From Ectothiorhodospira sp. BSL-9 (GTDB taxonomy: Bacteria > Pseudomonadota > Gammaproteobacteria > Ectothiorhodospirales > Ectothiorhodospiraceae), in NCBI RefSeq assembly GCF_001632845.1, contig NZ_CP011994.1, positions 1,364,001-1,428,000 of the forward strand: a DNA stretch of 64,000 bases, read 5' to 3'. This document shows, piece after piece, positions 7,777-39,532 of this stretch. A program made the position numbers and the translations under genes. Below the pieces are notes generated by a model. That model worked only from the letters and a program-made list of their open reading frames with translations, was not told the DNA's origin and made no database searches. Position 1 is the first letter of the stretch. Each line of letters starts with the position of its first letter.

Positions 7777-7923
7777 TGGGCCGCGGCCACCGCACGCCCA
7801 TGGCCAGTGGGCGCTGCAGCCTGTGCTACGCCCCTTGGCGCGCCGCCCCATTTGGGCTATTCTCCGCCCTCCCATCGGCCCGCTACCAAGCCAGCCCGTG
7901 GGATATGCTAGTATCTCCGTTAT

Positions 7924-8000
7924 GCGCCCGTAGCTCAGCTGGATAGAGTACTGCCCTCCGAAGGCAGGGGTCGCAGGTTCGAATCCTGCCGGGCGCGCCA
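7924..8000 (+). tRNA. tRNA-Arg (anticodon CCG)
   Basis: A 77-nt cloverleaf with encoded CCA. The acceptor stem pairs GCGCCCG (7924-7930) with CGGGCGC (7990-7996), then G and CCA. The anticodon arm is CTGCC-CTCCGAA-GGCAG, giving anticodon CCG (codon CGG). The T arm reads GCAGG-TTCGAAT-CCTGC. Its 3' half is repeated at 39486-39532, marking it as the integration site of the island that follows. The gene was left intact by the insertion. Confidence 0.97.
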
Positions 8001-8002
8001 TA
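7956..8002. repeat. attL: 47-bp direct repeat of tRNA-Arg 3' end
   Basis: Bases 7956-8002 (anticodon loop to two bases beyond CCA) recur without a mismatch at 39486-39532. This is the usual product of site-specific integration into a tRNA gene. The left copy is within the functional tRNA. Confidence 0.93.
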
Positions 8003-8320
8003 TCCCCTTAAATCAAAGGCTTACAGCCTCTCCATCGGCGCCGAAATGGCCGATGAGTGCTACCCACGCCTGCCAGCACTCGTTTTTGGCCTGTTTGCGG
8101 CCATCACTCAGCGAGTCAAGGCCTCCTTTTTCCGAAATGACCCGTTTTGGGCGTGTGCCCGGAATGTGCCCTGGGTGTGCCCGTGGGCGAAAAGAAGGAT
8201 CCTCATGGGGGGCGGGCATTGAGTCTTAGCCGCATCTGGGCGCGCGCCCTAAATCCGATAACCCCTATCGGATATTCCCAAACCAGCAGGTATCCCCCAC
8301 CCCCCCCCCTGTCAGGATAA
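8003..8320. other. Island left end, no clear gene
   Basis: This 318-nt stretch joins the tRNA to the group II intron. A minus-strand reading frame (8013-8219, 68 codons, ending close to the tRNA) could be the truncated end of a gene, perhaps of the lost integrase, but I see no diagnostic residues. GTGCCC words recur at 8155-8190. A C-rich run (8297-8309) lies just before the intron. Confidence 0.35.
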
Positions 8321-11453: not shown

Positions 11454-11528
11454 ATCGACAGAAGCGTCGCTCCCCATCGCTGTTTGCTCACTGGAGCGGC
11501 CGCGGCGAGTTTGTGGTTGGAGCAACAA

Positions 11529-11562
11529 GAGCCCGGTGAGTCGAGAGGCTCACGCCGGGTTC
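11529..11562 (+). ncRNA. Group II intron domain V hairpin
   Basis: A 34-nt hairpin starting GAGCCCGG and ending CCGGGTTC, with a GAGA-type loop, matches the catalytic domain V (catalytic triad in the 5' strand, 34 nt, 3' TTC). The RT stop codon at 11537 lies within its 5' strand. Confidence 0.85.
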
Positions 11563-11658
11563 TGTGAGCGGCCGAGGGGGCAGTTCCCTCGGCCGACTCG
11601 ACCGTCCGGTTTGATAGAGTATTTAAAACACCCTGGGGGCGAGAGAGGAGCGCCCAAG

Positions 11659-12156
11659 ATGCCGCGATATCCTGACGAACGCAGAGAAGCCGCAGTAGCC
11701 AAGCTATTGCCCCCGTACAACCTCTCGCCCCGGGAGGTGGCGGAGCAGGAAGGGGTTTCCATTGCCACGGTGTACAAGTGGCGCAAGGAGGCCCGAGAAC
11801 AAGGCCGCTGTCTTCCCCAGGCCACCGGGGCCGGTACTGAAGCTTGGTCATCCAAGGACAAGTTCTCCGCAGTGGTGGAGACAGCCGGGATGAACGCCCA
11901 GGAGGTGGCGGAGTATTGCCGTTCCCGGGGTTTGTATCCGGAGCAGTTACAGGTGTGGCGCCACGACTGTGAACAGGCAGCCGGCTTGGCGAGCCAGGAC
12001 CGCCGCCGTGAAGCCCAGGAACTCAAGGACCACAAGGCCCGCGTTCGTGAGCTGGAACGGGAGCTCAGACGCAAGGAGGCCGCGTTGGCGGAGACAGCGG
12101 CACTGCTGACACTGTCAAAAAAGGCCGCCGCGATCTGGGGGGACGAGGAAAAATGA
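11659..12156 (+). CDS. IS3-type OrfA, helix-turn-helix protein
   Basis: A 165-residue protein from ATG 11659 (MPRYPDERREAAVAKLLPPY). It contains two helix-turn-helix units (SPREVAEQEGVSIATVYKWRKEA and MNAQEVAEYCRSRGLYPEQLQVWRHD) and a C-terminal coiled coil (VRELERELRRKEAALAETAALL), the usual layout of IS3-group OrfA proteins. Its stop overlaps the OrfB start (12153). With orfB truncated it cannot support transposition alone. Confidence 0.8.
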   Translation: MPRYPDERREAAVAKLLPPYNLSPREVAEQEGVSIATVYKWRKEAREQGRCLPQATGAGTEAWSSKDKFSAVVETAGMNAQEVAEYCRSRGLYPEQLQVWRHDCEQAAGLASQDRRREAQELKDHKARVRELERELRRKEAALAETAALLTLSKKAAAIWGDEEK

Positions 12157-12683
12157 TCAGCACCGCAGATCGCCGCAAAACCGTTGAGTTGATCGATCAG
12201 GCCCGGGCCAAGGGGGCAAGGCTGACACCCGCCTGCGAGGTGGCCGGTATCTGTGCCCGCACCTACCAACGCTGGACCGCGCAGGACAACCTGGGGGAGG
12301 ATCGCCGCCCTTTCGCGGATCGGCCAAGGCCGGCCAATGCCCTGAGTCCTGAGGAAGAGCAAGCGATCCTGGACGTATGCAATCGGCCCGAGTACGCGTC
12401 CCTGCCACCGGATCAGATCCTGGTGCGCTTGCTGGACGAGGAAGATCGCTATCTGGCCTCGGTGTCCACGTTCTACCGGGTGCTGCGCCGTCACGGCCAG
12501 GTGGCTCACCGGGGGCGTGCCAAGGCCCCCCGCCGCAGCAAGCCACCGACCACGCATCAGGCCCATGCACCTAATCGGCTTTGGGTCTGGGACTGCACCT
12601 GGCTGCCAGGCCCAGCCCGGGGGACGTTCTACTACCTGATCATGATCCTGGACGTCTTCAGCCGCAAGGTCATCCGGATTAAT
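12153..12683 (+). pseudogene. IS3-type OrfB transposase, 3' truncated
   Basis: The frame from ATG 12153 gives VAGICARTYQRWTAQ, YASLPPDQILVRLLDEE, FYRVLRRHGQVAHRG and the first catalytic aspartate block LWVWDCTWLPGP ... LIMILDVFSRKVI. The second Asp and the Glu of the DDE triad are missing, because sequence beyond about 12680 is unrelated. The open frame runs on as a chimera to 12875 into the SIR2 gene region. It is not functional. Confidence 0.82.
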
Positions 12684-12782
12684 GCATGGGGCCATATCGA
12701 GGGGCGCGGAGTTCACCGGTCCCAGGATGAGGATACCCCAACGGTACGCCGAGATCCTCGAGCTGAAACCTACCGCGTACAT
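12684..12782. repeat. Degenerate repeat shared with 37762-37835
   Basis: This strip shares the words ATGGGGCCAT and GATGAGGATACCCCA, then CGAGATCCTCGA, with 37762-37835, where the first two are closer together. It lies between the broken IS3 element and the 3' end of the SIR2 gene, so the operon is joined to repeat debris on its downstream side. Its nature is unknown. Confidence 0.5.
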
Positions 12783-14078
12783 TCACCCCTGAGCGCTCAG
12801 TGGCTCGGCCGTATTCAAGGCCCGCTCCAGGTCGAAAAGAGCAGGGTTGCCGAAGTACCCATCGATCGCGAATAATCTGCCCTCACGGGCAAGGGGGGCG
12901 AAAAGGTCGAGGTAGCTATCGCGCACCTCAGGATTCGTTCTTATCCCGGGGTTCCACACGTAGATCTTGGGACTATAGTCATTCTTCGCAAGTGCAAGGG
13001 CCAGGAAGTGACGAAAGTAGAGATCGGATTGAGGTAAGGAGTACCCGATGAACACAATCCGTCGAACATTGCGCAACCCCCGAAGAATGAAACTCCATTG
13101 GTCCTGATACGCAGCTTTCGTGGACTGTTTGCGCCATGTCGGTGGGACGATGGCCATCATTTTTCCGTCGGACCACGTCGTAGTTGATCGCTCTGCCGTA
13201 AGTATCTGCGCCGAATCAATCCATACATCCGTGTTCCATTTATGTTTGCCCTTTTCGTACCGCAATCGCTCACAATTTTCTTCGTTTAATTCCGCCTCCA
13301 CACGTTCCAAATCCTGACAATTGTGTTTATTTTCCGACCGTTCGGTATCGACCCAACATAGCCCACCATGCGGTCGTGCGACACGAGGTGTGGACACATA
13401 AAAATCATCACTTGAATCCCGATACCAAGGAGGAATCTTTTGACCATCATCCCATAAATTTAGATAACAGAGCGCACGATCCAGGGCCAGATCCCAATTG
13501 AACTGAATGAAAAGAGGACGACTTTCGTCGGAGTCCTTATGAGACGCTAGGCAAAGGTAAGCAAGCAGGTTGGTATATGAAGAACCCTGATCCCAGGCTC
13601 GAATGGTCTCCGTCGAGCTTTCGCGCTTCACCATATCCAAACAATTCACACCGGGAAAACGTTTGGGATGCGATTGGAAATCTGAACCGGCGTTTATTGC
13701 TATGCGGAAAATCGCTCTATTCAGCGCCTCGCGCGCATCTCGCGCCAAACTTTCCATGGGGTCCGGTGCGAGCCCGAACTCATCGTCCCGAGAAGAGGGC
13801 TGTTCGTTTTTCCGGGGAGCCGTTCCAGCTGCCTCAAGATCAACCGCGAGGTCGACCATGCCGTAGAGTTCCTCAATGTTGAGCATCTGGGTGCGCACAT
13901 AGGCTCCCGATGGCTTAATTGTTTGTAAGAACTGCCTGATGTTCAGTAGGTGTTTCTCTCCCTCTTTGTTTGCTAGGGTTTCGTATACCTTGTCCATGAA
14001 AGCCGGCATGGGCGGCACACCCAAGCCGACGGAGCAACCGGCACCCACCACTATCGCGGTATATGGTTCCTTAGTCAT
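12783..14078 (-). CDS. SIR2-like protein, last gene of the eight-gene operon
   Basis: A 431-residue protein with a SIR2-like NAD-binding fold: GAGCSVGLGVPPMPAF at residues 12-27 (GAGxS glycine loop), FIQFNWDLALD at 190-200 (matching the T-N-WD strand of SIR2-type defence proteins), PHGGL at 236-240 with the candidate catalytic histidine, and FIGYSLPQSDLYFRHF at 343-358, the typical GYSLP-xD block. Several SIR2-like proteins of this sort are NAD-consuming effectors in anti-phage systems; a deacetylase role is less likely. The gene starts 8 nt inside the KaiC-like ATPase gene, so the two are coupled. It is visibly less GC-rich than the ligase genes, a sign of separate origin. Confidence 0.85.
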   Translation of the reverse strand: MTKEPYTAIVVGAGCSVGLGVPPMPAFMDKVYETLANKEGEKHLLNIRQFLQTIKPSGAYVRTQMLNIEELYGMVDLAVDLEAAGTAPRKNEQPSSRDDEFGLAPDPMESLARDAREALNRAIFRIAINAGSDFQSHPKRFPGVNCLDMVKRESSTETIRAWDQGSSYTNLLAYLCLASHKDSDESRPLFIQFNWDLALDRALCYLNLWDDGQKIPPWYRDSSDDFYVSTPRVARPHGGLCWVDTERSENKHNCQDLERVEAELNEENCERLRYEKGKHKWNTDVWIDSAQILTAERSTTTWSDGKMMAIVPPTWRKQSTKAAYQDQWSFILRGLRNVRRIVFIGYSLPQSDLYFRHFLALALAKNDYSPKIYVWNPGIRTNPEVRDSYLDLFAPLAREGRLFAIDGYFGNPALFDLERALNTAEPLSAQG

Positions 14079-15357
14079 GTAAGCCTCCGTGTTGAGCCTC
14101 TCCGAACAAAACCTCTAGCCAGGCGAGTCCATTTTTGGATAAATCATACGCATGACCACGCATATCATGCGCCGCACCGCGCATCTTCAGCACTCGCATG
14201 TAGCGCATGAGGTCACCACTTGGGTAACGATGGTAGTCGAGCTGAATTACCCCCGAGGCGAGGTAGCGCTCCTCGGTCCCAAGAAACAGGGGATGCCCGC
14301 GCAGAGTGTTATGCTCCGTCCTACGCGCTTCACACGCCATCATTGTAGTTACCTGCTGTTCCTCCAACCAGCGCACCAGATTCAGCATATGCAAACGCCG
14401 TGGCGACGCTTCCCCAAGGATACCTCCAGCGGCGGGCGAAGGGACCGAATTACCGGAAACTGCCTGTAGTTGTGCACAAGGATGCAACAATGCACTGAGG
14501 GAATCCAAGGCCAAAACACGCTGGGGCCATTCCCGGAAAGTAGCCAAAAGCATTGCCAAGAGATCCTTAAGCAGACGGACCCGCTCCGATGGGTCCGCCA
14601 CAGGCGGTGTGATAAGGGTAATCAGGCGCGGCCGACCCACTTCTCGAGATGACTCGGAATCCCTCGGTTTAACAAAGAAATCATCGGGGTTCTGCAACAG
14701 ATCTTCGAGGGAGAGGGCGGCTCCGTTTTCTTCATGGGCATACCAGCAGCGGCTCGGGTCTTGGTTTTGTGCACCGCAAGACGCGAGGTGTAGTTCCCGC
14801 TGTCGAGGGTTAGGCCGCGCGTCCGTACCTTCTTCGTTATCTTTGTCAAGCCTCGGATATCTCAGCATATCCTCCAGTCGCCCACTGAGCAGTGAGGTGG
14901 CATCAATGAACACATAAACATCGTCATCGGAACCAACAGCGCCTTTTCCTCTGCCGTTGTGAGGTCCATCCGTCGGATCAACGGTGGATTCGAGCATCGC
15001 CCCATGATGTTCCAACATCCGCGAAAACGGGTTTTCCAGCGACACAAAGATGCGCAAGTATCTAGAGTGTCCGTTCTCGTCGTTTTGCTCGGTTCGTATT
15101 CCGTACATATCCTTGCCATACTCACTTCCCGCTCCACGCATTTGTCCCTGAGGCTGAAAGAGGCGATCAAAAGCTTCCCATTGCCAGTCCTCAGGCGAGC
15201 CACCTTGGCCCTGGGAAGCCAGCCTGAGTGCATTGTTTACCAGCCGGGCGCGTTGAAAGAACGAAAGGAGCAGCATGGTTTTACCGGTACCCGGATCACC
15301 AACAATGGCCACCGTGTTCCCTTTTGGAATGCCGCAGGACTGCCTACCATCTACCAT
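14071..15357 (-). CDS. KaiC/RecA-like P-loop ATPase
   Basis: A 428-residue ATPase. Walker A is GDPGTGKT (residues 20-27) right at the N-terminus; IFVSLENPFSRM (about 103) matches the strand-loop after Walker A in KaiC proteins; Walker B is VLALDSLSALL (281-291); and the C-terminal YHRYPSGDLMRYMRVLKMRG ... GHAYDLSKNGLAW resembles the KaiC end. An insert of about 100 residues (150-250), with DDDVYVFIDATSLLSGR and two Cys, is unusual. The N-terminus is shorter than in most KaiC domains, which carry about 20 residues before the P loop; a stop codon in frame just upstream excludes an earlier start. It overlaps the SIR2 gene, suggesting a sensor/effector pair. Its partners and ligand are unknown. 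Confidence 0.82.
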   Translation of the reverse strand: MVDGRQSCGIPKGNTVAIVGDPGTGKTMLLLSFFQRARLVNNALRLASQGQGGSPEDWQWEAFDRLFQPQGQMRGAGSEYGKDMYGIRTEQNDENGHSRYLRIFVSLENPFSRMLEHHGAMLESTVDPTDGPHNGRGKGAVGSDDDVYVFIDATSLLSGRLEDMLRYPRLDKDNEEGTDARPNPRQRELHLASCGAQNQDPSRCWYAHEENGAALSLEDLLQNPDDFFVKPRDSESSREVGRPRLITLITPPVADPSERVRLLKDLLAMLLATFREWPQRVLALDSLSALLHPCAQLQAVSGNSVPSPAAGGILGEASPRRLHMLNLVRWLEEQQVTTMMACEARRTEHNTLRGHPLFLGTEERYLASGVIQLDYHRYPSGDLMRYMRVLKMRGAAHDMRGHAYDLSKNGLAWLEVLFGEAQHGGLHD

Positions 15358-15392
15358 AGTCTACTTCCATTCGTTCAGTTTCGCATTTTGAC

Positions 15393-17162
15393 TTATGAAA
15401 CGGATGTAGCGACTGCAACGCCTGCCGTCGATGTGGCCTGCGTATGGCAATCACCGGATTCGAACCCAGCCCGGGGGCTGACGAGCCGGAACCCCTTCAC
15501 CGAATCCGTGTTCAGTCCCAGTCGAAGGATGGTTCGATCCACCCCGGCTTGGGTGGCTGACATTGGCTCTCCCCGCAGATTAAGCGATGTGTTCACGACT
15601 AGAGGCCAGCCAGTGGCCATGTCCAATCGTCTCAGTAATTCGTGAAACTCCGGCTGTAGGTGGGCATGCACTACTTGCAGGCGGACACTGCCATCTTTGT
15701 GCAACAGGTGCGCTAACCGTTGTTGCCAGATGGCGCGCGGACTCACAGTCACCAACATGGTCCGTACCAGAGAGCGCGCGGAATCGGGAATATCGAACAT
15801 CTCATCTGCACGTTCGGCCAATACGGATAACGCAACCGGCTCGTAAGCATACCGCCCCTTAAGGCGGTTGATCCGCTGTACGATATCCCTATCCCACGAG
15901 GGACCAAGGAGCGAACGTGCCCCTAGGGCGCGGGGGCCGAACTCGCAGCGCCCGATAGCCCAGGGCGCGCAATCACCAGCGAGCAGACGTTGTACCACTG
16001 ACTTAGCGCTGCTCAGCCCATTTTGCCGATATGCATCCGTGTGCGGTGCTTCCGCATGCAGTCTGGGACCACTGAACACAACAAGGGCAGCGTCTTGCTG
16101 TGGTACGGGCCGTTGGCAAAGTTGTGTATGAACCTGCCATGCTGCACCCAGTGCGGTGCCCGCGTCGTGTGACGCGGGTCCGGCATGGATGCTCCGAAAC
16201 AGCCCAGATCGCGCGAGCTTTTCGTTTGCTCGACAATTCAGCGCCACCCCGCCACCGTAGGCAAGATTAACCGAACCATATCGTTGTCGGATTTCCTGTC
16301 CAAGCTCTAAAAGCACGGTCTCCGTGGCGTGCTGAATGGCGTGGGCAATGGAGGGGCCCTGCGAACGCGTCTGGCGTCCGAACCGCCGCCGAAGCCCCGC
16401 GAAGTCGTCGGGATATTCGAGGCGAAAGATGTCCTGATCCACGATCAGTCGGCCATCGCGTACCTGCAGGGCATCGGCAAGATGGCTATGTACCGCGTGG
16501 TCCGCATCCGTACCAGCCCCTTGCGCCAATCCAGCGAGCGCCATCACTTTGGATGCATCGTATTCGGTGAGGTCAAGGAACCGTGCCACTTTTTCCCACG
16601 CCAGGCCCAGGGAGTCCGGGAAAAAGGACTGTGCGTCAAGATGCAGCGACCGCCGATCACCCCAGCCGATGGACACCGTGGCACCCTCGCCAATGCCGTC
16701 CATCACCAAGATCGCCGCTTCGTCGAATGTCGACGTTCCCATCGCATACCACCCGTGAGCTTCGTGGTGGGGCACAAACACGAAGTCCGTACGCTCGCCC
16801 AATGGTAGCTCATCAGGAACTCTGGCCAAACTCTGTTGAAAAAGTGCCTCGCCCTCCGGGTGTCCGAAGCAGTCGGGGATTCCATCCGTGCCCAGACAGG
16901 CATGACTTTGGCGCAAATGAGGATCCAGGGAATAGGCAACGGCAGTGATCGAGGCCCAGTCAATTCGGGCGGCATCCAAACATGCATTGATCGCTCGCCA
17001 GGGTAGTTCATCCGCGTTATCTACGCGCACCACCTTGCCATGCTTGGGGCCGCCGAGGCGTTCCTCTTCCACCGACATCACAAGCTCGCCATCCGCGATC
17101 AGCGCTGCAGCGGACTCATGGTAGGCACAATTGATTCCCAGGATGTACTGAGGCTGACTCAT
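15393..17162 (-). CDS. NodU/CmcH-family carbamoyltransferase
   Basis: A 589-residue protein from ATG 17162 (MSQPQYILGINCAYHESAAAL), overlapping the upstream stop as ATGA. It has the two-part make-up of O-carbamoyltransferases: an N-terminal Kae1-like domain (GINCAYHESAAALIADG, VPHHEAHGWYAM, AILVMDGIGEG, YGGGVALNCRANEKL) and a C-terminal YrdC-like domain with GRCEFGPRALGARSLLG and VVNTSLNLRGEP. Relatives move a carbamoyl group from carbamoyl phosphate, via a carbamoyl adenylate, onto hydroxyls of small molecules (Nod factors, cephamycin, tobramycin). The substrate here is unknown, but the enzyme implies that the operon builds or decorates a small molecule or a nucleoside. Confidence 0.9.
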   Translation of the reverse strand: MSQPQYILGINCAYHESAAALIADGELVMSVEEERLGGPKHGKVVRVDNADELPWRAINACLDAARIDWASITAVAYSLDPHLRQSHACLGTDGIPDCFGHPEGEALFQQSLARVPDELPLGERTDFVFVPHHEAHGWYAMGTSTFDEAAILVMDGIGEGATVSIGWGDRRSLHLDAQSFFPDSLGLAWEKVARFLDLTEYDASKVMALAGLAQGAGTDADHAVHSHLADALQVRDGRLIVDQDIFRLEYPDDFAGLRRRFGRQTRSQGPSIAHAIQHATETVLLELGQEIRQRYGSVNLAYGGGVALNCRANEKLARSGLFRSIHAGPASHDAGTALGAAWQVHTQLCQRPVPQQDAALVVFSGPRLHAEAPHTDAYRQNGLSSAKSVVQRLLAGDCAPWAIGRCEFGPRALGARSLLGPSWDRDIVQRINRLKGRYAYEPVALSVLAERADEMFDIPDSARSLVRTMLVTVSPRAIWQQRLAHLLHKDGSVRLQVVHAHLQPEFHELLRRLDMATGWPLVVNTSLNLRGEPMSATQAGVDRTILRLGLNTDSVKGFRLVSPRAGFESGDCHTQATSTAGVAVATSVS

Positions 17163-18280
17163 GGGGCAGCACACGAACTTGTACTATCCGTTTTCTGCAT
17201 CGACATCCTTGGCAACGGAAAGGTCGTGACGAAACAACCTTGTGCCGATTCCTTTGCTAATTCGCCCCTAGTCTCCCTTTCCAGACTTTGTATATCCTGA
17301 TTACCCTTATCGCGCAGATAATTGAACTGCCAGATCGGCAGATACAGTCGAGCCCCCGGCAATTCCGCCTCACGGGGCAAGGCTTCGACATGCAACCGGG
17401 GAATCCGCAAACCGCCGTAATGATACGGTGTCAGCACGATGATCCCATCGAAGAATGATTCCAGATAGCTGGCTTGGGCGGGCTCCATGACCCCTTCCTG
17501 CAAAACTGCGAAGAATAGGCCATCTTGATCGGCAACACGCATATCGCTGTTCCCACTCTGTCTCTCGTCCTGTGTCCAGATATCCTGCAACATCGTCTTC
17601 AATAGCGCAGCAGTCTCCGCTAGCCCGAGATTGCGATATAGATTGCTTAGCGAATGCAGCAGGAAGACGTTTAAGTCGTCGTTGGTTTTCGCCTGCCCGG
17701 CTTGGCGGAAGAACCGGTAGGTCCGCATCGGGTTCCCTGCTCCGATGATGGATTGGGACCACCACTTGGGAGAGGTATTATAATTCCGACCTTCACTTTG
17801 ATTTTCGTCAGAAAACAAGATGCATGGCTGCTCGTTTTCTGGGAACTCACCATATGTATCGAGCCAGTAAGCAAGTTCCGGGAGGTAGGCGCCTGGTAAC
17901 GACTGACGTCGTACCTTTCCTACAAAATCACCCGCCATCTGGATTGAATTGCTTCCTTCTGCGCCAAGCGCTTGGAGCAGGTTACTGCGTTCGTCATCAA
18001 TGAACATTGCAATCAGGTTGGTCCCACTTTTCCGGTCAGTCTCACTCGATAACAAATCCTCTGATTTGTTTATTGCCCGGGTGCCGAAGAGAATCTCGCC
18101 GAGCAAGGGGTAAAGCTCGGTGATGCGGAGACTTGAACGGATGATATAGGCGTGGCCGCTCGGGAGGCAGCGTCCATCGGCCACCAAACCCGGCATGGTC
18201 GGACGAATCCCGGGTGGTGGCTCCTTTGCATTAGCTGATCCGGTTTTGGATTCAGTTACGTTGCCGTTTTCCATTGCCAT
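17159..18280 (-). CDS. Unknown protein of the operon, possibly a degenerate RecA/KaiC relative
   Basis: A 373-residue protein I do not recognise. It has no signal peptide or membrane helix. No Walker A is present. The C-terminal third (MRVADQDGLFFAVLQEGVME, then YLESFFDGIIVLTPYHYGG) has the strand order and FDGIIxL phrase seen near the C-terminus of KaiC-like domains, so an inactive paralogue of the neighbouring ATPase is conceivable; this is weak. Its stop overlaps the carbamoyltransferase start (ATGA) and it follows the second ligase by 72 nt, the largest gap in the operon. GC content looks lower than in the ligase genes. Confidence 0.7.
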   Translation of the reverse strand: MAMENGNVTESKTGSANAKEPPPGIRPTMPGLVADGRCLPSGHAYIIRSSLRITELYPLLGEILFGTRAINKSEDLLSSETDRKSGTNLIAMFIDDERSNLLQALGAEGSNSIQMAGDFVGKVRRQSLPGAYLPELAYWLDTYGEFPENEQPCILFSDENQSEGRNYNTSPKWWSQSIIGAGNPMRTYRFFRQAGQAKTNDDLNVFLLHSLSNLYRNLGLAETAALLKTMLQDIWTQDERQSGNSDMRVADQDGLFFAVLQEGVMEPAQASYLESFFDGIIVLTPYHYGGLRIPRLHVEALPREAELPGARLYLPIWQFNYLRDKGNQDIQSLERETRGELAKESAQGCFVTTFPLPRMSMQKTDSTSSCAAP

Positions 18281-18352
18281 CTTACCCCATCGCTCTTGGT
18301 GCTGGATAAAACCAGACCACCGTCGAAATTTCCGCCCTGAACCTACGCTCTT

Positions 18353-19519
18353 TTAGAGATTCGCACTCGCAGCGTGCTGCCGTGTGCTCCGTTCGATCCA
18401 GTGTAGATCCACCACCCCCTCATGAACCAGTTCAGCCAATTCCGGCAACGCACTCCAAAGCCTATGTTCGATTCTCTTGCGCGATCTCACCAATCGCCCC
18501 ACGATTTCGATCGTCGGGCGAAAAGCACCGGCAAGATGCGGGGCCGAAGGACGCCCGGGCATATCCTTGTAGCGAAACCGGAGTCCGGGTTCGAGTTCCT
18601 GTAGAAGCTGGGTAAGCTGATTTACATCAAGTTTCACCGCACGCGGCAGATTCAGACTCGTAGCGATGCGGCCCGAGAGATGCACGCGGGACTGTGCGCT
18701 GCCACATGCACACTGTGCCCGCTCCACGCGCCCGATGTCGCCGCTGCGGTAGCGCAGCATCGGCATACGCGTCTGCATGAAACTCGTCAGCACGAGTTCG
18801 CCTTCCTCTCCCTCGGGAACCGGCTGGTCACAATCGGGGTGGAGCACCTCGACGCCCGTGGCATCCGGCCAGTAGTGATAACCGTCTCGAACCGCGCATT
18901 CAGAACCCACGACGCACTCGGAGAGACCGTAGGCGTCGTAGACGAAGGCACCGAAAGCCGCCTCGATGCGATGGCGTTCTTCGTGCAGGAGCGTTTCGCC
19001 CGTGGTTTCGATCAGTTCAAGGCGCGGGCCGCGATAATGGAGCGCCCAGGCCGAGAGCACACTGGGCGTACTGGAGATCACAGTGGGACGAATCTGTTCC
19101 GCCATGTGCTGCCAGGCAGCCACGCCTCCGTGCAGGTCGACCGGAAACACTTGCGCGCCCGCACGACGATGGCCATCCACCGTAATGCGTCCCACGGTCC
19201 ACAAGCCCATGGGTAGTAGCACCATAACCCGGGAATCCCTACCCACCCCTTCAAGTCGGGCAAAGCGGGCACAGAGTTCGGCTACCCGCCCCAGATCCTC
19301 CACACTGTAGCGCACCAGCTTCGGCCCACCCGTGGTACCGGACGTATGGAAAAGCATGTCAGGACCAGCGCTGGCGTCATCCGACCTCAGTTTTGGGGAA
19401 GTGAGTGTCGGAAGAGACTGCCACGCCCTGTCCCCGAAACATTCTATTCCTTTAAAATTCCACCCCCGGTAGATCGGGCTAACCGCTGCCTGCTTCAGCA
19501 ACTGACGAAGGGTTAGCAT
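18353..19519 (-). CDS. AMP-forming acyl-adenylate ligase, PaaK-like (second of pair)
   Basis: About 388 residues from ATG 19519 (MLTLRQLLKQAAVSPIYRGW), which sits 4 nt after the stop of the first ligase. Adenylate-forming marks: FHTSGTTGGPKLVRYS (P-loop A3), YDAYGLSECVVGSE (A5-like) and LRYRSGDIGRVER. A CX1C...C pattern (QCACGS) follows, as in phenylacetate-CoA ligase relatives. It is shorter than PaaK (about 430), with a reduced C-terminal subdomain, which raises doubt about whether CoA or another acceptor is used. It would activate a carboxylic acid as an acyl-AMP; substrate unknown. Longer ORF starts up to 19699 lie inside the upstream gene and are unlikely. Confidence 0.83.
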   Translation of the reverse strand: MLTLRQLLKQAAVSPIYRGWNFKGIECFGDRAWQSLPTLTSPKLRSDDASAGPDMLFHTSGTTGGPKLVRYSVEDLGRVAELCARFARLEGVGRDSRVMVLLPMGLWTVGRITVDGHRRAGAQVFPVDLHGGVAAWQHMAEQIRPTVISSTPSVLSAWALHYRGPRLELIETTGETLLHEERHRIEAAFGAFVYDAYGLSECVVGSECAVRDGYHYWPDATGVEVLHPDCDQPVPEGEEGELVLTSFMQTRMPMLRYRSGDIGRVERAQCACGSAQSRVHLSGRIATSLNLPRAVKLDVNQLTQLLQELEPGLRFRYKDMPGRPSAPHLAGAFRPTIEIVGRLVRSRKRIEHRLWSALPELAELVHEGVVDLHWIERSTRQHAASANL

Positions 19520-19523
19520 AGGC

Positions 19524-20714
19524 TTACAGCCCCCAAGGGGCTTCCGTGATCTCGAGCCGGCGCTTCGCGCGTGACGGTGCCTCGCGCACACGGACGTGCA
19601 GCTCCAGCAGACCACCGTGAGCGACATCCCCGATCTCGATTGAGGAGAGAACAAACCGATCGCGGATTTTTTCAGGATGCGGCAGCGGCCGACTGGCACC
19701 CAATTCGATCAGCAGCTGGTCCCGGGGTGCGCAATGTCGCAAGTTAAACATGGCCTCGTGGATCGGCATCCCCAGTGTATCCAGAAAGTGATCAATCTGG
19801 GCACGCGTTATCTTGACGCCGCCAGCGAGAGTGAAAGCGTGTCCATGGCGACCAAGGTACCGGAAACACCGAGTACCGGACGCGTCTTCCAAGAGTTCTG
19901 CCCGATCCCCCAGCGGATAACGCAACACGGGCTGAGCAAGGCCGTAGCGACGCGTAAGCAGAAGTTCACCGACTCCCGAGTCTCGTACCGTACCGTCTGC
20001 ATCCCGCACCTCCAGATGGATGCGATCCGGATTCCAGCGGAACACCCCTGCCATCCCCGTTTCGAAACCGAGCACGGCTTCGCTGGCCGCGAACAAAGCT
20101 CGCGGCGATGCGCCAAAGCGCTTGGCAAGAGCCGAACGCAGCATCGGCGGCACCGCCTCACCTACAAGTAAGATACGCTCGACTTGCCGCTGCCCAGGAA
20201 GTTCGCTCAGAAGCCACGCTACCGAGGGGGTCGTAACCAGCACGTTGACGCGTGTCTCCTCCATCAGGCGCGTGGCCGCAGGAAGATAGGGCGCATAGAG
20301 GCCAACTGGCAGCACGCTCGCGCCGAGGCTCAGCAGGGCATCGGTGAGATTGTCTCCGGAAAACCAGGGACCGAAAGGCAGTAGCACCGCAGCATGATCT
20401 CCTGCGGCGACACCCAGCGCAGCGAGACACTCCGCACGATGTGCGGTTGTTTCCTGCCAATCGTCAGCGGAAAACAATACAGGTTTTGGGTTGCCAGTAG
20501 TTCCGCTGGTAAAGAAGCCGAGGCTGGGGCGAGCCTCCTTTACACGCGCCGGCTCGGTGTTCAGGCTAGCAGTAGGGATATCCCGCCAAGCGTGCACCGC
20601 ACGAAGCCGATTTTCGAACCGTGGATCCGAGCGCAACCGCCCCAGCAATTCGGAAGCCCACGCAGGACCCCGAACCGTTACTCTGGATTGCACTGGGCCT
20701 TGGCGCTGCGTCAC
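19524..20714 (-). CDS. AMP-forming acyl-adenylate ligase, PaaK-like (first of pair)
   Basis: About 396 residues. I place the start at GTG 20714, with AGGAG 9 nt upstream, just after the preceding radical SAM gene; the longer frame to 20822 would overlap that gene. The protein has FFTSGTTGNPKPVLFS (A3), VLLPFGPWFSGDNLTDAL, RALFAASEAVLGFETG (in place of A5) and LRYPLGDRAELLED. It parallels its downstream neighbour domain for domain, so the pair likely arose by duplication and may act as a heterodimer or on two substrates. No carrier-protein gene is nearby. Confidence 0.82.
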   Translation of the reverse strand: MTQRQGPVQSRVTVRGPAWASELLGRLRSDPRFENRLRAVHAWRDIPTASLNTEPARVKEARPSLGFFTSGTTGNPKPVLFSADDWQETTAHRAECLAALGVAAGDHAAVLLPFGPWFSGDNLTDALLSLGASVLPVGLYAPYLPAATRLMEETRVNVLVTTPSVAWLLSELPGQRQVERILLVGEAVPPMLRSALAKRFGASPRALFAASEAVLGFETGMAGVFRWNPDRIHLEVRDADGTVRDSGVGELLLTRRYGLAQPVLRYPLGDRAELLEDASGTRCFRYLGRHGHAFTLAGGVKITRAQIDHFLDTLGMPIHEAMFNLRHCAPRDQLLIELGASRPLPHPEKIRDRFVLSSIEIGDVAHGGLLELHVRVREAPSRAKRRLEITEAPWGL

Positions 20715-20737
20715 TGGGTAGAACTCCTGTCGGTGGA

Positions 20738-22078
20738 CTATTGGCCTGCGGCCCGAAGGCGGCCATAGTAATTCTCGACGAAACCGGCGGCAACATCGAG
20801 TTGCTCCTGTAGCCGCCGGCACCAGGGCCGCGCATCCCTGCGACGCAGGTCGTGCTCGTGGAACGCATGATCTGGAGCCGCGCGCAGGCGCGCCGCCCGT
20901 GCGCGGTAGGCAACGTCGTCTTGGTTGCGCACTAGGTCGATAATACAGGCGTGGATCGCCTCGGTGACTGCATCCGTCGTTTGGCGGTGCGGGTTGGTCA
21001 GCAGATTGCAGCGCGGCCGAGGATCGGACTCCAGCCCGCCGAGGAACCAGTCGAAAGGGGTCACCGGTCGGCTTCGCACTGGCCGAAAGGCAAGCAGTCG
21101 ATCTGCAAGGTCGAGGAGGAAATAGGGCTCGGGAAGCCGATAAAGTCCAACCTCATGCAGCAAATCCGGCAACGTATAGGCCTGAAGATTCGGGACCATC
21201 ACGTTGGCAAACAGGCCCAGCTTTTCCAGGAACATCAAGCTGTTCGTTGTCTGTTCTAGGATCTCTGCGACTGTCAGGAAGGTCGCACCCGCGAAGACGA
21301 ATACTCCGGGGTCCAGTCCATAGACCTGAGCCACCTTCATTGCTTTGATGAAGCTGGTGCGCGGCAGATCTTTGGCGAATCCCACGTTGCGCAGAAAATC
21401 GTTCTCCGCCTCGAACCCAACATTGATCACCGCGTCCAAGGAGCGAAGCAGAGGCGCGAGATCCCGCAGTTCGCCGCTACGTTCCACATTCAATATATGT
21501 TCTGCCCGACACTCCAGCATGAGATGAAGGTTGACACCCCTTTCCTCCTGGAACGTCAACAGTCGTTCGAGAATCATCTTGCGCTGGATTGGCGGTACCT
21601 CAGCGTCGCGGAAAAAGCTGCTCTCTCCCGCGAGTTGAAGCATGTACCACGGACGTCGCGGGGCGCTGCGCAGCCGATATCCCGGCAGTCGCCCACTGGC
21701 CTCGGCGACGAAAAGATCGTCGAACCGTTCCAGAAGCCATTCCAGTTGCCGGGGAAGGCTTGCATACTGGGCTTCGCGGGTTAGCCCTGCAGGGTGAGCT
21801 CGTGCCGAATAGCTGCAGGGCCCACAGAAACCGAGCACATACTTGTCGCAAGGAACACTGCGGAAAGCAATGATGGGGTAACGCCCACTCGGGGCATGGT
21901 CCCAATAGATGTCGGGACGTTGCGGCGCACCGGCCAGTGGTGCCGTAGCACGTTCGTGGCGCAGGCGCCGTTTCCGCAACTCCCGCGTCAAGGCGAGGGC
22001 GCGGTCGAGAAGTTGCTCGCCGTCGGCCGTACCGTCATCCACGGCTGACAGGAAAACGCCGTTCCCCGCCAGCGCCAT
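20738..22078 (-). CDS. Radical SAM protein, Elp3/RaSEA-like (second of pair)
   Basis: A 446-residue protein. The cluster motif is CDKYVLGFCGPCSY (CX7CX2C) near residue 77. The barrel then shows VNLHLMLECRAEHIL, AVINVGFEAENDFLRNVGF and DPGVFVFAGATFLT, phrases typical of the Elp3/TIGR01210-like branch, in which the cleft recognises tRNA bases or other nucleic acid parts. Its start codon shares a base with the stop of the upstream radical SAM gene (TGATG), giving tight coupling. The C-terminal 100 residues are rich in Arg and helical (AYRARAARLRAAPDHAFHEH). The substrate is unknown. Confidence 0.84.
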   Translation of the reverse strand: MALAGNGVFLSAVDDGTADGEQLLDRALALTRELRKRRLRHERATAPLAGAPQRPDIYWDHAPSGRYPIIAFRSVPCDKYVLGFCGPCSYSARAHPAGLTREAQYASLPRQLEWLLERFDDLFVAEASGRLPGYRLRSAPRRPWYMLQLAGESSFFRDAEVPPIQRKMILERLLTFQEERGVNLHLMLECRAEHILNVERSGELRDLAPLLRSLDAVINVGFEAENDFLRNVGFAKDLPRTSFIKAMKVAQVYGLDPGVFVFAGATFLTVAEILEQTTNSLMFLEKLGLFANVMVPNLQAYTLPDLLHEVGLYRLPEPYFLLDLADRLLAFRPVRSRPVTPFDWFLGGLESDPRPRCNLLTNPHRQTTDAVTEAIHACIIDLVRNQDDVAYRARAARLRAAPDHAFHEHDLRRRDARPWCRRLQEQLDVAAGFVENYYGRLRAAGQ

Positions 22079-23358
22079 CAGGCCCAGCCCTCGGAATCTG
22101 CCATCCTGCTCAGTTCGTCGGCGGGGATCAGGGTCGGGTCGATGCCGAGTTCCGCAGCCAAGAATTGGTACTCCGCCAGTACCCGCTCTGCAAGCGGCGC
22201 CGGCGCACTAATGCAGCTCTCACTGGCGCGGTAGTCATCACGGCAGCCACAGGGGGATATGGCTCGGATATGTTCGAACTCCCCCGTCTGATTCCAGAAA
22301 TTCAGTGCCCCTTTCACGTGATCGGTACATACTTCGCATGTACGTGCGTAAAGTCGGGGCGGCACCGGTGCGTGGCTGATACCCTTGATTTGCACTGCGC
22401 GCCGATAGCGCTCGGGAAGCCGCTCAAGCAATTCGACGGCACGCCAGAGACTAGACAGTCGGTAGCGTCCCCGTTCCGCCAAATAGCCGGTCAGGCAAAA
22501 ATCGACCATGTTCGTGACCATCAAAAAAACGTAATCGGCGCCGTGATCGACGGCGAATCGGATGGTGCGTATCGCGTCGTCGATGTCCTCGCACGCGGTC
22601 ATAAACGGCTTGCCGAGCAGCACGTAGCAGTCGAACGAGAAGCCCTGCGCCTGCAGCAGCGTGAAGGCTTCCAGATAGTCCTCGCGCCGCCGGCCCTTGT
22701 TGATGCAGAATTGCTGCACAAAATCGTCGCTGCTCTCAAGGCCAAAGGAGATGGAAACCGGATGCGGCCCCTGCCCCGACGCGGATTCCGGCGAGAACGC
22801 ATCTACCATTGTGCGGAGCCGCGGAACAGTAATGTACTCGGGACGGGTCTCGATCACGAGAAACTGGAAGCCCGCTTCGCGCAGCATTCTCAGCAGGACC
22901 GGGCGCACTTCGTCCGACACCTCTGCTCGGTCGAGAAAACTCCCATTGGAAGTGAACACCAACGTCGGATACACCACCGGATTGAGACGGTTGATCGCGT
23001 CACGTGTCTGCGCGACCAACTGCTCATCGGTAACCAGAGCACGGTTTGCGCCCAGATGGTAACCGCACATCACGCAACCTGCGGATACCGACCATCTGCA
23101 GGGATTCGTCCGTAGCGTTACCAGCGGCATAACGTAAGGCCCTTGGCGTGGGTCGTTTGCTCCGTGCAGACGGACCTCCTCGTAATAAATATCAGTGTGC
23201 CAGGGATCAGGCTCCGCAGCCGTAATCTCCCGCCGCAGCACAGCCTGCATGACGTGGTTAAGAAAGCGGTTACCGCGTCGGGCAGTAAGCCCACAAGGCA
23301 CTGGGGTTTCGGTCGAAACCGCTACCCGAACGATCCCCACGGCTCTGTCGTTCATCAC
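22078..23358 (-). CDS. Radical SAM protein, Elp3/RaSEA-like (first gene of operon)
   Basis: A 426-residue protein, first in the operon. The cluster motif CRWSVSAGCVMCGYHLG (CX7CX2C) follows VMPLVTLRTN and closely recalls the RaSEA/TIGR01210 pattern of archaeosine synthase radical SAM subunits. Further marks: LVFTSNGSFLD, LVIETRPEYI, VSISFGLESSDDFVQQFCINKG and GFSFDCYVLLGKPF, as in Elp3-type barrels. A C-terminal cysteine group (ARTCEVC, SPCGCRDDYRASESC) may hold another metal site. In archaea the related enzyme converts a lysine-bearing deazaguanine in tRNA; here no tRNA-guanine transglycosylase is near, so the target may be DNA, RNA or a free small molecule. It starts at ATG 23358; ATG 23355 is also possible. 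Confidence 0.85.
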   Translation of the reverse strand: MMNDRAVGIVRVAVSTETPVPCGLTARRGNRFLNHVMQAVLRREITAAEPDPWHTDIYYEEVRLHGANDPRQGPYVMPLVTLRTNPCRWSVSAGCVMCGYHLGANRALVTDEQLVAQTRDAINRLNPVVYPTLVFTSNGSFLDRAEVSDEVRPVLLRMLREAGFQFLVIETRPEYITVPRLRTMVDAFSPESASGQGPHPVSISFGLESSDDFVQQFCINKGRRREDYLEAFTLLQAQGFSFDCYVLLGKPFMTACEDIDDAIRTIRFAVDHGADYVFLMVTNMVDFCLTGYLAERGRYRLSSLWRAVELLERLPERYRRAVQIKGISHAPVPPRLYARTCEVCTDHVKGALNFWNQTGEFEHIRAISPCGCRDDYRASESCISAPAPLAERVLAEYQFLAAELGIDPTLIPADELSRMADSEGWA

Positions 23359-30175: not shown

Positions 30176-31880
30176 CGTCCCCGGGTGTCGCAAAACCATT
30201 GACACGTTCCGCAATGCGGTCATGGAGCGCTTCTTTGGTTCACTGAAAAGCGAGTGGCTGGCCGACCAGCGTTACCTCAACCGTGAGCAGGCCCGGCAGG
30301 ACATCGTTCAGTACATCGAGATGGAGTACAACAGCGACCGACTCCACTCGTCCCTGGGGTACATCACCCCACAGCAACACTTTTTAGCGGTTGCTGCTTA
30401 ATCTGTGTCCGCTACGACTTGACCAGAACACTACGTCGACGATTTGAGCGAGCGTGGCTATGCACCGGGTAGTATTACGCGTCGCGTACCGGTGCTGATG
30501 AACTTCGCTGCCTTTGCCGCCCAGAACGGGGCCGCCTGCCCGGACGACCTACCGGCGCATGTCGATCCTTTTGTGCAGATGTGGCTCCACACCCGCGGCC
30601 ACCAAGCAGAGGGCAGAAGCCGTCGCGGCGGATTGTCCAGCTTCGCCGACGAACTACGCCGTCCCATTCTCCAGTTATTGCGTCGTCTGCTACCGGAGAG
30701 GGGGTTCTCACGGACGGTTCGGCCGCTGCCATTTGCCGAGACCGTGCCGGATTTCTTTGATGCATTACACGAGGAGCGAGGGCTGCGCCCGTCGACGCTC
30801 CAGCTTTACGCGAGCCATCTGCGCCTCCTCGAGCGCTTTCTGCAGCGCCAGGACGGGATTGACCTCCAGACGCTCTCGCCAAGCGAACTGGAGGCCTTCA
30901 TGCGCGAGTGCAGTGCAACGCAGACCCCCGCATCGCTGGCCCCCCTGTTCTCTCATCTACGCATCTTCCTGCGCTACCTGCACCGGGAAGGGTTGCTAAA
31001 CGTTGACCTGAGTGTGCATGTCGACGGCCCGCGTCATTATCGACTCGCCACGCTGCCGCGGGCTATCAACTGGGATGACATCACTCAGTTGCTGGCAGCC
31101 GTGGATCGGCGCAGCGCCGTTGGCAAGCGCGACTATGCCTTGCTGGTTTTGCTGACCACCTACGGACTGCGTGCCCGTGAGGTGGCCGCCCTGACCTTGG
31201 AGGATATTGATTGGGTGCACGAGCGGCTGGCGGTTCCAGCGCGCAAGGGTGGGCATGCCAGCGCCTATCCGCTCTCGCCAGGGGTCGGCGAGGCGCTGGT
31301 GGAGTACCTCCAACATGGCCGGGCGACGAGTAACCAGCGTGCTGTTTTTCTTCGCATGCCGGCGCCGCACGACCCGATGACTCATTCGGCCATCAGTGAA
31401 TGCGTAGGCAAAAGAATCAAGCGTGCCGGGATCGCTGTTGCACGCCCAGGCTCGCATACCCTGCGCCACAGCTGCGTGACACGGCTGGTGGAGAGGGGAT
31501 TTTCCTTGAAGGCCATTGGCGACTATGTGGGACACCGCCATCCGAAGTCGACGCAGATCTACACCAAGCTTGATCTTGAGGCGCTGCGTGAGTTGGCCCT
31601 TGGTGACGGGGAGGTATTGCTATGACAACGTTGCGCAGTCCGCTCACCGGGCCCACGCATGAGTTCCTCGCCCACCACCGCGCTTTGGGAAAACGCTACG
31701 ACAACGAGGCGGCCGCCCTGCAACTGCTTGATCATTATGTACTCGATCAGCAGGTCGAAACCCTGGAGGCGATCACGCCGGCGCTGCTCGACGCCTTCCT
31801 GGATTCGCGCCCCCGCGCATCGGCGCGCAGCTACAACCATCTGCTCAGTGTGCTCCGGCGTTTCTTCCGCTGGCTGGACC

Positions 31881-39485: not shown

Positions 39486-39532
39486 CTCCGAAGGCAGGGG
39501 TCGCAGGTTCGAATCCTGCCGGGCGCGCCATA
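39486..39532. repeat. attR: tRNA-Arg 3' end duplicate
   Basis: A perfect 47-bp match to 7956-8002, covering anticodon loop to CCA. It is followed by chromosome-side sequence and the terminator that once served the intact tRNA gene. Confidence 0.93.

What the first reader, a model, noticed from the sequence alone, without database searches (positions are those of the whole stretch)
20738..23358. Two consecutive CX7CX2C radical SAM proteins of the RaSEA/Elp3 type outside any queuosine/archaeosine context
Both have CX7CX2C (CRWSVSAGCVMC and CDKYVLGFCGPC), unlike the common CX3CX2C, and Elp3-like barrel phrases. In archaea, the RaSEA subunit works on a lysine-preQ0 base with ArcS. Neither ArcS, TGT nor preQ0 genes are here.
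Basis: partly seen in the sequence, partly recalled or inferred. Interest (0 to 1): 0.6.

Follow-up and report, generated by a model that had tools for sequence, protein, structure and literature searches.

The report
Mobile radical-SAM and SIR2 operon
Two radical enzymes distantly related to the archaeal tRNA-modifying enzyme RaSEA open a compact operon, found in two bacterial classes, that also carries two activating ligases, a KaiC-type ATPase and a SIR2-like protein; it looks like a new, untested kind of bacterial conflict or defence system.

Summary
In detail: two overlapping genes (22078-23358 and 20738-22078, - strand) encode CX7CX2C radical SAM proteins, the cysteines invariant in 5 of 5 homologous pairs. 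Both match only TIGR01210 (RaSEA) among NCBIfam models, below its cut-off; the rSAM1 model is most like Elp3 in Foldseek. By that cut-off they are not RaSEA.

The main find is their gene set. The window adds a carbamoyltransferase, inside a 31.5-kb island bounded by a 47-bp tRNA-Arg repeat.

Best reading: a mobile conflict/defence system in which ligases activate a carboxylate, the rSAM pair does radical chemistry on the adduct, and KaiC gates a SIR2 NADase-type effector. The operon unit is shown; chemistry and defence role are inferred (0.45). The eight operon proteins match no PADLOC system, and no listed paper in my searches described the set. Rivals: natural-product synthesis; nucleic-acid modification without immunity.

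The parts
22078..23358 (-). rSAM1: RaSEA-like radical SAM protein, CX7CX2C, plus a C-terminal CX2C...CXC quartet
   Evidence: TIGR01210 147.1 bits, cut-off 212.15; AF2 model, Foldseek top hits Elp3; quartet at residues 341-372; homologues 69, 74, 47, 48% identical
20738..22078 (-). rSAM2: divergent RaSEA-like radical SAM protein, CX7CX2C, no Cys quartet
   Evidence: TIGR01210 52.9 bits; hhalign to rSAM1 99.3%; homologues 57, 63, 41, 43%
19524..20822 (-). LigA: PaaK-like AMP-forming ligase (listed ORF overlaps rSAM2 by 85 bases; true start may be internal)
   Evidence: PF00501 48.4 bits, cut-off 29.9; homologues 44, 34, 37%
18353..19519 (-). LigB: second PaaK-like AMP-forming ligase (ORF listed to 19699; homologues align from codon 61)
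   Evidence: PF00501 65.8 bits; profile matches phenylacetate-CoA ligase 4r1l, E 5.7e-35; homologues 51, 52%; ATG at 19519
17159..18280 (-). X: protein of unknown family, conserved in the operon
   Evidence: No hit in Pfam, NCBIfam, PADLOC, PHROGs or PDB profile search; homologues 29, 27%; not detectably KaiC-like
15393..17174 (-). NodU-type carbamoyltransferase; absent from the L016 and L017 operons
   Evidence: PF02543 114.4 bits and PF16861 130.2 bits, both over cut-off; PHROG 'Nol-like carbamoyltransferase' E 1.3e-64
14071..15357 (-). KaiC-type RecA-fold ATPase with Walker A (GDPGTGKT) and DSLSALL motif
   Evidence: PF06745 70 bits, cut-off 26.6; motifs in 3 of 3 rows; homologues 47, 48%
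12783..14078 (-). SIR2-like protein, candidate effector (GxGCSxGLGVP, FNWDLA, RPHG, IGYSxPxSD)
   Evidence: Motifs in 3 of 3 rows; weak SIR2 hits in PADLOC and, for its homologues, Pfam SIR2_2 under cut-off; homologues 41, 43%
7924..8000 (+). tRNA-Arg (CCG), probable integration site of the island
   Evidence: ARAGORN, Rfam
7956..8002 (+). left copy of a 47-bp perfect direct repeat (tRNA 3' end)
39486..39532 (+). right copy of the 47-bp repeat: probable other attachment site; island about 31.5 kb
30444..31625 (+). tyrosine recombinase / phage integrase family
   Evidence: PF00589 106.8 bits
33253..33966 (+). tyrosine recombinase / phage integrase family
   Evidence: PF00589 70.6 bits
33963..34985 (+). 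tyrosine recombinase / phage integrase family
   Evidence: PF00589 112.4 bits

Best explanation
The two radical SAM genes are the first two genes of a mobile, conserved seven-gene operon: rSAM1-rSAM2-LigA-LigB-X-KaiC-SIR2, with a carbamoyltransferase added in the window. Shown: the proteins, their invariant motifs, the conserved gene order in two classes, and the island in the window. Inferred: LigA and/or LigB activate a carboxylic acid as acyl-AMP and attach it to a target; the rSAM1-rSAM2 pair, probably a heterodimer with one RaSEA-like and one divergent subunit, then does 5'-deoxyadenosyl-radical chemistry on that adduct, following the 'ligate, then radicalise' logic of ArcS/RaSEA; the carbamoyltransferase, where present, decorates the product. 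KaiC and X sense or gate the state of this product or mark. The SIR2-like protein, with SIR2-type motifs kept, is the effector, probably an NADase triggered when a phage or plasmid disturbs the system. Overall role: defence or conflict between mobile elements.
For: Conserved unit: the same seven genes, order and strand in L016 and L017, from one genus in another class of the phylum, with identities to the window of rSAM1 47/48, rSAM2 41/43, LigA 34/37, LigB 51/52, X 29/27, KaiC 47/48, SIR2 41/43%; the genes outside differ from the window's. rSAM1-rSAM2-LigA also in L007 and, with a SIR2-like gene, in L008. rSAM1 and rSAM2 are each one clade (100/99 and 100/100), and both trees set L016 and L017 apart from window, L007 and L008. 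Mobility: 47-bp tRNA-Arg repeat, three integrases, transposases and a group II intron; patchy: 1 of 58 relatives and 1 of 47 genomes of the order, the own genome in both. Effector type: SIR2 motifs in 3 of 3; PADLOC SIR2 models at E 2.5e-5 (L016) and 1e-3 (window). Neighbours: a TIR protein with weak STAND/NACHT-type hits starts 8 bases after the SIR2-like frame in L008 (TIR_2 64.4 bits, ThsB model 83.8 bits); HmaB (1616 bits) 2.3 kb from the L016 operon; in the window a type IV restriction model (391 bits) and a PDC-S01 model (513 bits) 22-27 kb away and outside the island.
Against: No function is tested. The SIR2 assignment rests on short motifs and weak profile hits; its AF2 model failed (pLDDT 41.7). 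Defence neighbours are few, were looked for only in hand-picked ORFs (9 window ORFs and 1 of L016; L008) and were not held against a background rate; the PDC-S01 hit is to Pfam a plain AAA_14/DUF4143 protein. L017's neighbours were not scanned with PADLOC and none struck me by eye; L007's contig is too short. Related rSAMs occur in what looks like a Streptomyces antibiotic-type cluster (L003) and beside a carbamoyltransferase (L066), which favours a metabolite pathway. No DNA- or RNA-targeting gene is recognised. L008 lacks LigB, X and KaiC (lost or mis-assembled); LigB was not found elsewhere in the genomes of L007 and L008.
Confidence: 0.45

Rival explanations
1. The operon makes a small molecule (natural product, e.g. 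a nucleoside- or amino-acid-like metabolite): the ligases activate acids, the rSAM pair and carbamoyltransferase tailor the product, and KaiC/SIR2 regulate or give self-protection.
For: A RaSEA-like rSAM sits beside P450, SHMT, glycosyltransferase 9 and carbamoyltransferase genes on Streptomyces plasmid pFRL3, with an AroA-type gene in the same stretch; a RaSEA-like rSAM gene overlaps a carbamoyltransferase gene in L066; the best plasmid hits of the window carbamoyltransferase (36-37% identity, 254 records in all) are in Mycetohabitans and Streptomyces clavuligerus, known as antibiotic producers (recalled).
Against: No carrier protein, transporter or pathway regulator was recognised among the seven conserved genes (X is unknown); the carbamoyltransferase is missing from the L016 and L017 operons; a SIR2-like protein and a KaiC-type ATPase are conserved core genes.
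Confidence: 0.22
2. The enzymes hypermodify a nucleic acid (tRNA or DNA base) by RaSEA/Elp3-like chemistry without an immune role, KaiC being a helper ATPase.
For: Nearest family is the tRNA-modifying RaSEA, first Foldseek hits Elp3; a MiaA-like and an MnmE-like gene lie nearby in L016 and L007 (by eye).
Against: Those neighbours look like housekeeping genes and differ between loci; no transglycosylase or nucleic-acid-binding gene recognised in the operon; a rare, mobile operon is not typical of a housekeeping tRNA modification.
Confidence: 0.2
3. A modification-restriction pair: rSAMs and ligases mark host DNA, KaiC/SIR2 attack unmarked DNA, as in Dnd or Dpd systems (recalled).
For: Modification-type and ATPase/effector-type genes in one operon; mobile island.
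Against: No DNA-targeting subunit or nuclease domain found. It is a sub-case of the best explanation with a specific target.
Confidence: 0.1
4. Genuine archaeosine-type enzymes (RaSEA) acquired from archaea.
For: Only NCBIfam match is TIGR01210.
Against: All six proteins scanned lie under the 212.15-bit cut-off (46-161 bits); no ArcS or TGT in the operon.
Confidence: 0.03

Closest known systems
RaSEA (TIGR01210), archaeosine biosynthesis radical SAM protein
   Same: Only NCBIfam match of both proteins; homologues of rSAM1 aligned over most of the model; in archaea acts after a ligating partner, ArcS (PMC11298593, passages including the abstract)
   Different: Below equivalog cut-off; two unequal paralogues; no ArcS/TGT found; AMP ligases, KaiC and SIR2 instead
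Elp3 (Elongator catalytic subunit)
   Same: First 11 Foldseek PDB hits of the rSAM1 model
   Different: No acetyltransferase domain found; TM-scores only 0.36-0.46; VIA-align Z for Elp3 (13.3-14.2) ties with many other radical SAM folds
SIR2-effector defence systems (Thoeris ThsA, SIR2 NADases; KomC in PDB)
   Same: GxGxS, N-x-D, H and IGYS motifs (correspondence recalled); weak SIR2 profile hits
   Different: No full-length profile match; partners are rSAMs, ligases and KaiC; no TIR hit in the window operon
Prokaryotic viperins
   Same: Radical SAM enzyme in immunity (PMC12926258, one passage)
   Different: No PADLOC hit for either rSAM; nearest profile is RaSEA. Viperin structures do appear among fold matches, as do many radical SAM folds
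RaSEA-like rSAM of Streptomyces plasmid pFRL3 (L003)
   Same: Related rSAM (23.6% identity) with the Cys quartet; carbamoyltransferase nearby
   Different: CX4CX2C; antibiotic-type neighbours; no second rSAM, ligase, KaiC or SIR2 annotated in the 28.8-kb stretch
Phenylacetate-CoA ligase (PaaK) family
   Same: LigB profile hits 4r1l at E 5.7e-35; AMP-binding domain in both ligases
   Different: Every NCBIfam cut-off listed was missed; two ligases side by side with rSAMs
KaiC family ATPases
   Same: PF06745 over cut-off; Walker A
   Different: KaiC clock model cut-offs missed by far (44.4 bits against 408)

Membership tests
Radical SAM superfamily | three-cysteine 4Fe-4S motif in a radical SAM barrel | tested here: met
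   Invariant CX7CX2C in 5 of 5 rSAM1 and 5 of 5 rSAM2; rSAM1 model matches radical SAM folds. rSAM2 by profile similarity to rSAM1 only
RaSEA (TIGR01210) | score at or above the curated cut-off of 212.15 bits | tested here: not met
   rSAM1 147.1, 140.1, 161.1; rSAM2 52.9, 46.2, 54.4 bits
RaSEA (TIGR01210) | ArcS partner and preQ0-bearing tRNA | tested here: inconclusive
   No ArcS/TGT hit in the operon or in 29 other window ORFs; the rest of the genome was not searched and no tRNA was examined
RaSEA (TIGR01210) | same clade as archaeal RaSEA | not tested
   No archaeal RaSEA sequence was obtained; the tree lacks it
Elp3 | radical SAM domain of Elp3 type | tested here: inconclusive
   Elp3 leads Foldseek but ties with other radical SAM folds in VIA-align
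Elp3 | C-terminal GNAT/KAT domain | tested here: not met
   No acetyltransferase hit for either protein in Pfam or NCBIfam
Elp3 | tRNA-binding residues | not testable with these tools
   No Elp3 alignment with mapped residues was available
SIR2 NADase effectors | SIR2 Rossmann fold with NAD motif and catalytic Asn and His | tested here: inconclusive
   Motifs in 3 of 3; weak HMM hits; AF2 model too poor
Thoeris | ThsB (TIR) together with ThsA (SIR2) | tested here: not met
   No TIR/ThsB hit among the 8 operon proteins; L008 has a TIR neighbour
Known PADLOC defence system | full-length hits to a system's genes | tested here: not met
   Only short P-loop or SIR2-motif hits for the 8 operon proteins
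Prokaryotic viperin | viperin profile match | tested here: not met
   No PADLOC hit for either rSAM at E 0.1
KaiC-type ATPase domain | PF06745 over gathering score, Walker A | tested here: met
   70 bits against 26.6; GDPGTGKT in 3 of 3
PaaK-like AMP-forming ligases | AMP-binding domain over cut-off | tested here: met
   LigA 48.4 and LigB 65.8 bits against 29.9; activity and substrate untested

The most novel reading that the evidence does not exclude
A new class of bacterial immune system that couples RaSEA-like radical SAM chemistry on an acyl-adenylate-derived adduct (a mark or signal molecule) to a KaiC-gated SIR2 NADase.
Probability: 0.35. Interest if true: 0.9.

Novelty: categorically new. 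Interest (0 to 1): 0.7.

Why it matters
If the unit works as proposed, it would bring tRNA-modification-type radical chemistry into bacterial immunity, where viperins are the radical SAM enzymes I know of, and would show a way to drive a SIR2 effector through ligases and radical enzymes. Even if it proves a metabolite pathway, it defines a conserved radical SAM pair of unknown chemistry together with its likely substrate-activating ligases, which makes the chemistry of RaSEA-like enzymes outside archaea directly testable.

Tried and rejected
X as a degenerate KaiC paralogue: looked plausible by eye, but hhalign gave a probability of 0.2%, its score of 16.3 lay below the best of 100 column-shuffled controls (21.9), and hmmsearch scores of the three X proteins (-0.6 to -3.0 bits) lay below the best shuffled ones (2.9). 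Rejected.

SIR2-like fold by AlphaFold: model too poor (pLDDT 41.7), so no fold search was made with it. A PDB profile search gave only weak hits, to KomC SIR2 NADases (E 0.19-0.20, three sequences) and a ribosomal protein (E 0.65); I do not count them. Profiles of rSAM1, rSAM2 and X found nothing in PDB by sequence; single rSAM1 gave only unrelated hits at E 0.29-0.75, rSAM2 none.

Phages, plasmids and viral contigs as sources: rSAM1 no phage hit and two Streptomyces plasmids only; rSAM2 and X no plasmid hit; the SIR2-like protein one, in Cohnella herbarum (28.2%, E 3e-6, 43% covered), not followed up; the rSAMs of L003 and L066 again only the two Streptomyces plasmids. Scans of viral contigs with rSAM1, X, A2, A1 and A9 found no relative.

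Other genome searches: TIGR01210 rang in 60 of 398 genomes of the phylum and 15 of 385 of the class of G721, 0 over the cut-off in either; most of those I read by motif were YhcC-like or other radical SAM types. In 35 genomes of the order of G781, 2 matched: G781 itself and a distant fusion protein (L085).

Rows left out: of 25 ORFs cut from hits I put 14 into the tree (28 rows in all) and dropped 11 (five of about 480-516 aa with a CX3CX2C motif, three further YhcC-like copies, and L042, L074, L077). L040 is cut by a contig end. The tree joins long branches (L003 with L066; L004/L005 with L043/L045) and its deep forks are weak, so I use it only for the rSAM1, rSAM2 and YhcC-like clades.

LigB was sought in the genomes of L007 and L008; only the LigA-type hit on each known contig was found.

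Literature: searches; no listed title or abstract start described this gene set. I saw listings only (10 of 15, 25 of 50) and passages of four papers: PMC11298593, PMC8565338, PMC10250203, PMC12926258. Subscription journals and preprints outside the library were not searched.
Full report
CHECK OF THE OBSERVATION. Both ORFs exist as described on the - strand, 23358-22078 and 22078-20738, sharing one base. The motifs are C-X7-C-X2-C in both and invariant in the 5-row alignments of homologues. Against NCBIfam, both match only TIGR01210, 'archaeosine biosynthesis radical SAM protein RaSEA', at 147.1 and 52.9 bits, under its cut-off of 212.15; the two further pairs scanned behave the same (L016 140.1 and 46.2, L007 161.1 and 54.4 bits). 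Pfam's Radical_SAM gives 21.8 bits for rSAM1, under its cut-off of 29.5, and nothing for rSAM2.

WHAT THEY ARE. The rSAM1 model is good (pLDDT 76.7, pTM 0.83). Foldseek puts Elp3 chains in ranks 1 to 11, with TM-scores of 0.36-0.46; VIA-align gives Elp3 a Z of 13.3-14.2, tied with biotin synthase, queuine lyase, viperin, HydE and others near 14-15. So the barrel is certain and an Elp3-like placement likely but not exclusive. rSAM2 was not folded; its profile is related to that of rSAM1 (hhalign 99.3%). The two differ: rSAM1 has a second cysteine set, CX2C-X25-CXC in the window, in 5 of 5 full-length rows, and a set of this kind is also in the rSAMs of L003, L066 and L080; rSAM2 lacks it in 5 of 5. 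In the tree (28 rows) rSAM1 (6 rows) and rSAM2 (5 rows) are single clades with 100/99 and 100/100 support, apart from a YhcC-like group (9 rows; the name YhcC is recalled). A heterodimer of unequal subunits is a natural inference, not a result.

THE OPERON. The two genes are followed on the same strand by two PaaK-like ligases, an unknown protein X, a NodU-like carbamoyltransferase, a KaiC-type ATPase and a SIR2-like protein. A profile of rSAM2 searched in 398 genomes of the phylum found it in 3: the own genome and two of one genus in another class. Those two (L016, L017) carry rSAM1-rSAM2-LigA-LigB-X-KaiC-SIR2 in the same order and strand, without the carbamoyltransferase. Identities to the window run from 27% (X) to 52% (LigB). 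A scan of genome contigs gave two further loci: L007 (titled Gammaproteobacteria), with rSAM1-rSAM2-LigA near the contig end, and L008 (titled uncultured bacterium), with rSAM1, rSAM2, a LigA reading frame that runs into the SIR2-like one, and then a TIR protein. L008 has either lost genes or is mis-assembled. A contig-end fragment in G491 (L040) is a sixth rSAM1. Seven genes kept in order over this distance, with different genes outside, indicate one functional unit.

RARITY AND MOBILITY. 1 of 58 relatives (rSAM1) and 1 of 47 genomes of the order (A4) match, the own genome in both; 2 of 8 of the family of G451 (A2) and 2 of 48 of its class (A5), the same two genomes. In 369 genomes of the window's class, 4 matched rSAM1: the own genome and three distant proteins. 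The window's copy lies between two perfect 47-bp copies of the 3' end of tRNA-Arg, 31,530 bases apart, with three integrase genes, transposases and a group II intron. Operon GC is 57.8%, against 64.1% and 61.9% to the left and right of the island.

THE PARTNERS. The LigB profile matches phenylacetate-CoA ligase (4r1l, E 5.7e-35) and both ligases have AMP-binding domains over cut-off. The LigB motifs I looked for are in 3 of 3; for LigA two are in 4 of 4 and my P-loop pattern in 3 of 4, L007 having a serine variant. LigB ends before the region in which LigA has an invariant lysine (my reading). KaiC has an intact Walker A and PF06745 at 70 bits. The SIR2-like protein keeps GxGCSxGLGVP, FNWDLA, RPHG and IGYSxPxSD in 3 of 3. 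That these correspond to the NAD site and the catalytic Asn and His of SIR2 NADases is recalled knowledge. Profile support is weak: PADLOC SIR2 models at E 1e-3 (window) and 2.5e-5 (L016), Pfam SIR2_2 at E 0.018 and 0.035, under cut-off (L016, L017), nothing for the window protein at E 0.01, and its model failed. X has no match in the libraries tried and is not detectably KaiC-like.

FUNCTION. For defence: SIR2-type effector, mobility, patchiness, and defence-type neighbours: a TIR protein next to the SIR2-like frame in L008, HmaB at 1616 bits near the L016 operon (Hma was named as a candidate defence system in PMC8565338, passages), and a type IV restriction model and PDC-S01 22-27 kb away in the window, outside the island. 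Against it or neutral: the neighbours were hand-picked, no background rate was computed, PDC-S01 is to Pfam a plain AAA_14/DUF4143 protein, L017 was not scanned with PADLOC and showed me no such neighbour by eye, and related rSAMs keep company with carbamoyltransferases in L003 and L066, which suggests small-molecule or adduct chemistry. I give the conflict/defence reading 0.45, natural product 0.22, non-immune nucleic-acid modification 0.20, DNA mark and restriction 0.10 and RaSEA proper 0.03.

MECHANISM. ArcS attaches lysine to preQ0 in tRNA and RaSEA, in a complex with ArcS, converts the adduct to archaeosine (PMC11298593, passages including the abstract). The operon has two ligases in place of ArcS, which suggests the same logic: activate and attach a carboxylate, then rearrange or cleave it by radical chemistry. 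By eye, L079 has an ATP-grasp-like region in the same chain as a RaSEA-like domain and L066 an ATP-grasp-like neighbour (the only Pfam sign for L066 is E 0.028; L079 was not scanned), in line with a ligase-then-radical theme. Substrate, product and the link to KaiC and SIR2 are unknown.

NOVELTY. The eight operon proteins match no PADLOC system, and no paper listed was seen to combine these genes (listings only; 25 of 50). I rate the gene set categorically new and its function unproven.

Noticed in passing
L066 (G721), 7014-19565: A RaSEA-like CX7CX2C radical SAM gene (148.6 bits to TIGR01210) overlaps a NodU-like carbamoyltransferase gene and lies with a HATPase (histidine-kinase-type) gene and, by eye, ATP-grasp-like and ATPase-like genes, next to an LRR-Roc-COR protein; conjugation-type genes seen by eye.
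   Followed up: partly
L079 6863-11521: A 1552-aa protein that by eye joins an ATP-grasp region, a biotin-synthase-like radical SAM, a RaSEA-like radical SAM and a nitroreductase-like part.
   Followed up: no
L085 6863-8911: A 682-aa fusion of an N-terminal hydrophobic segment and an unknown domain with a RaSEA-like radical SAM (CX8CX2C); no Pfam hit at E 1e-4.
   Followed up: partly
L003 13791-20441: Streptomyces plasmid pFRL3: a RaSEA-like rSAM (172.6 bits, CX4CX2C) with P450, SHMT, GT9 and a carbamoyltransferase, an antibiotic-type cluster.
   Followed up: partly
L016 14016-14768 and L017 8476-9171: Similar methyltransferase-type genes converge on the 3' end of the operon in both other-class loci; not seen beside the window's operon.
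   Followed up: partly
L008 3379-4845: LigA reading frame runs in frame into the SIR2-like gene, as if the genes between had been deleted, or an assembly fault.
   Followed up: partly
L016 4401-5312 and L007 8-871: tRNA-modification housekeeping genes (MiaA-like, MnmE-like by eye) lie upstream of the operon in two loci; probably chance.
   Followed up: no
window 4942-7217: Another radical SAM gene next to a Memo-family gene, reminiscent of the AmmeMemoRadiSam set (name recalled).
   Followed up: no
window 45443-49312: A 1289-aa protein with methyltransferase, PLD, helicase, S24 and DUF3427 parts; PADLOC type IV restriction model 391 bits.
   Followed up: partly
window 8394-11602: Group II intron with its reverse transcriptase beside tRNA-Arg; a Mutator-type transposase lies inside the span.
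   Followed up: no
window 55656-56813: OrfB_IS605/TnpB-type protein that PADLOC's Cas12f/Cas12u models pick up; a transposon gene, not a CRISPR effector as far as seen.
   Followed up: no
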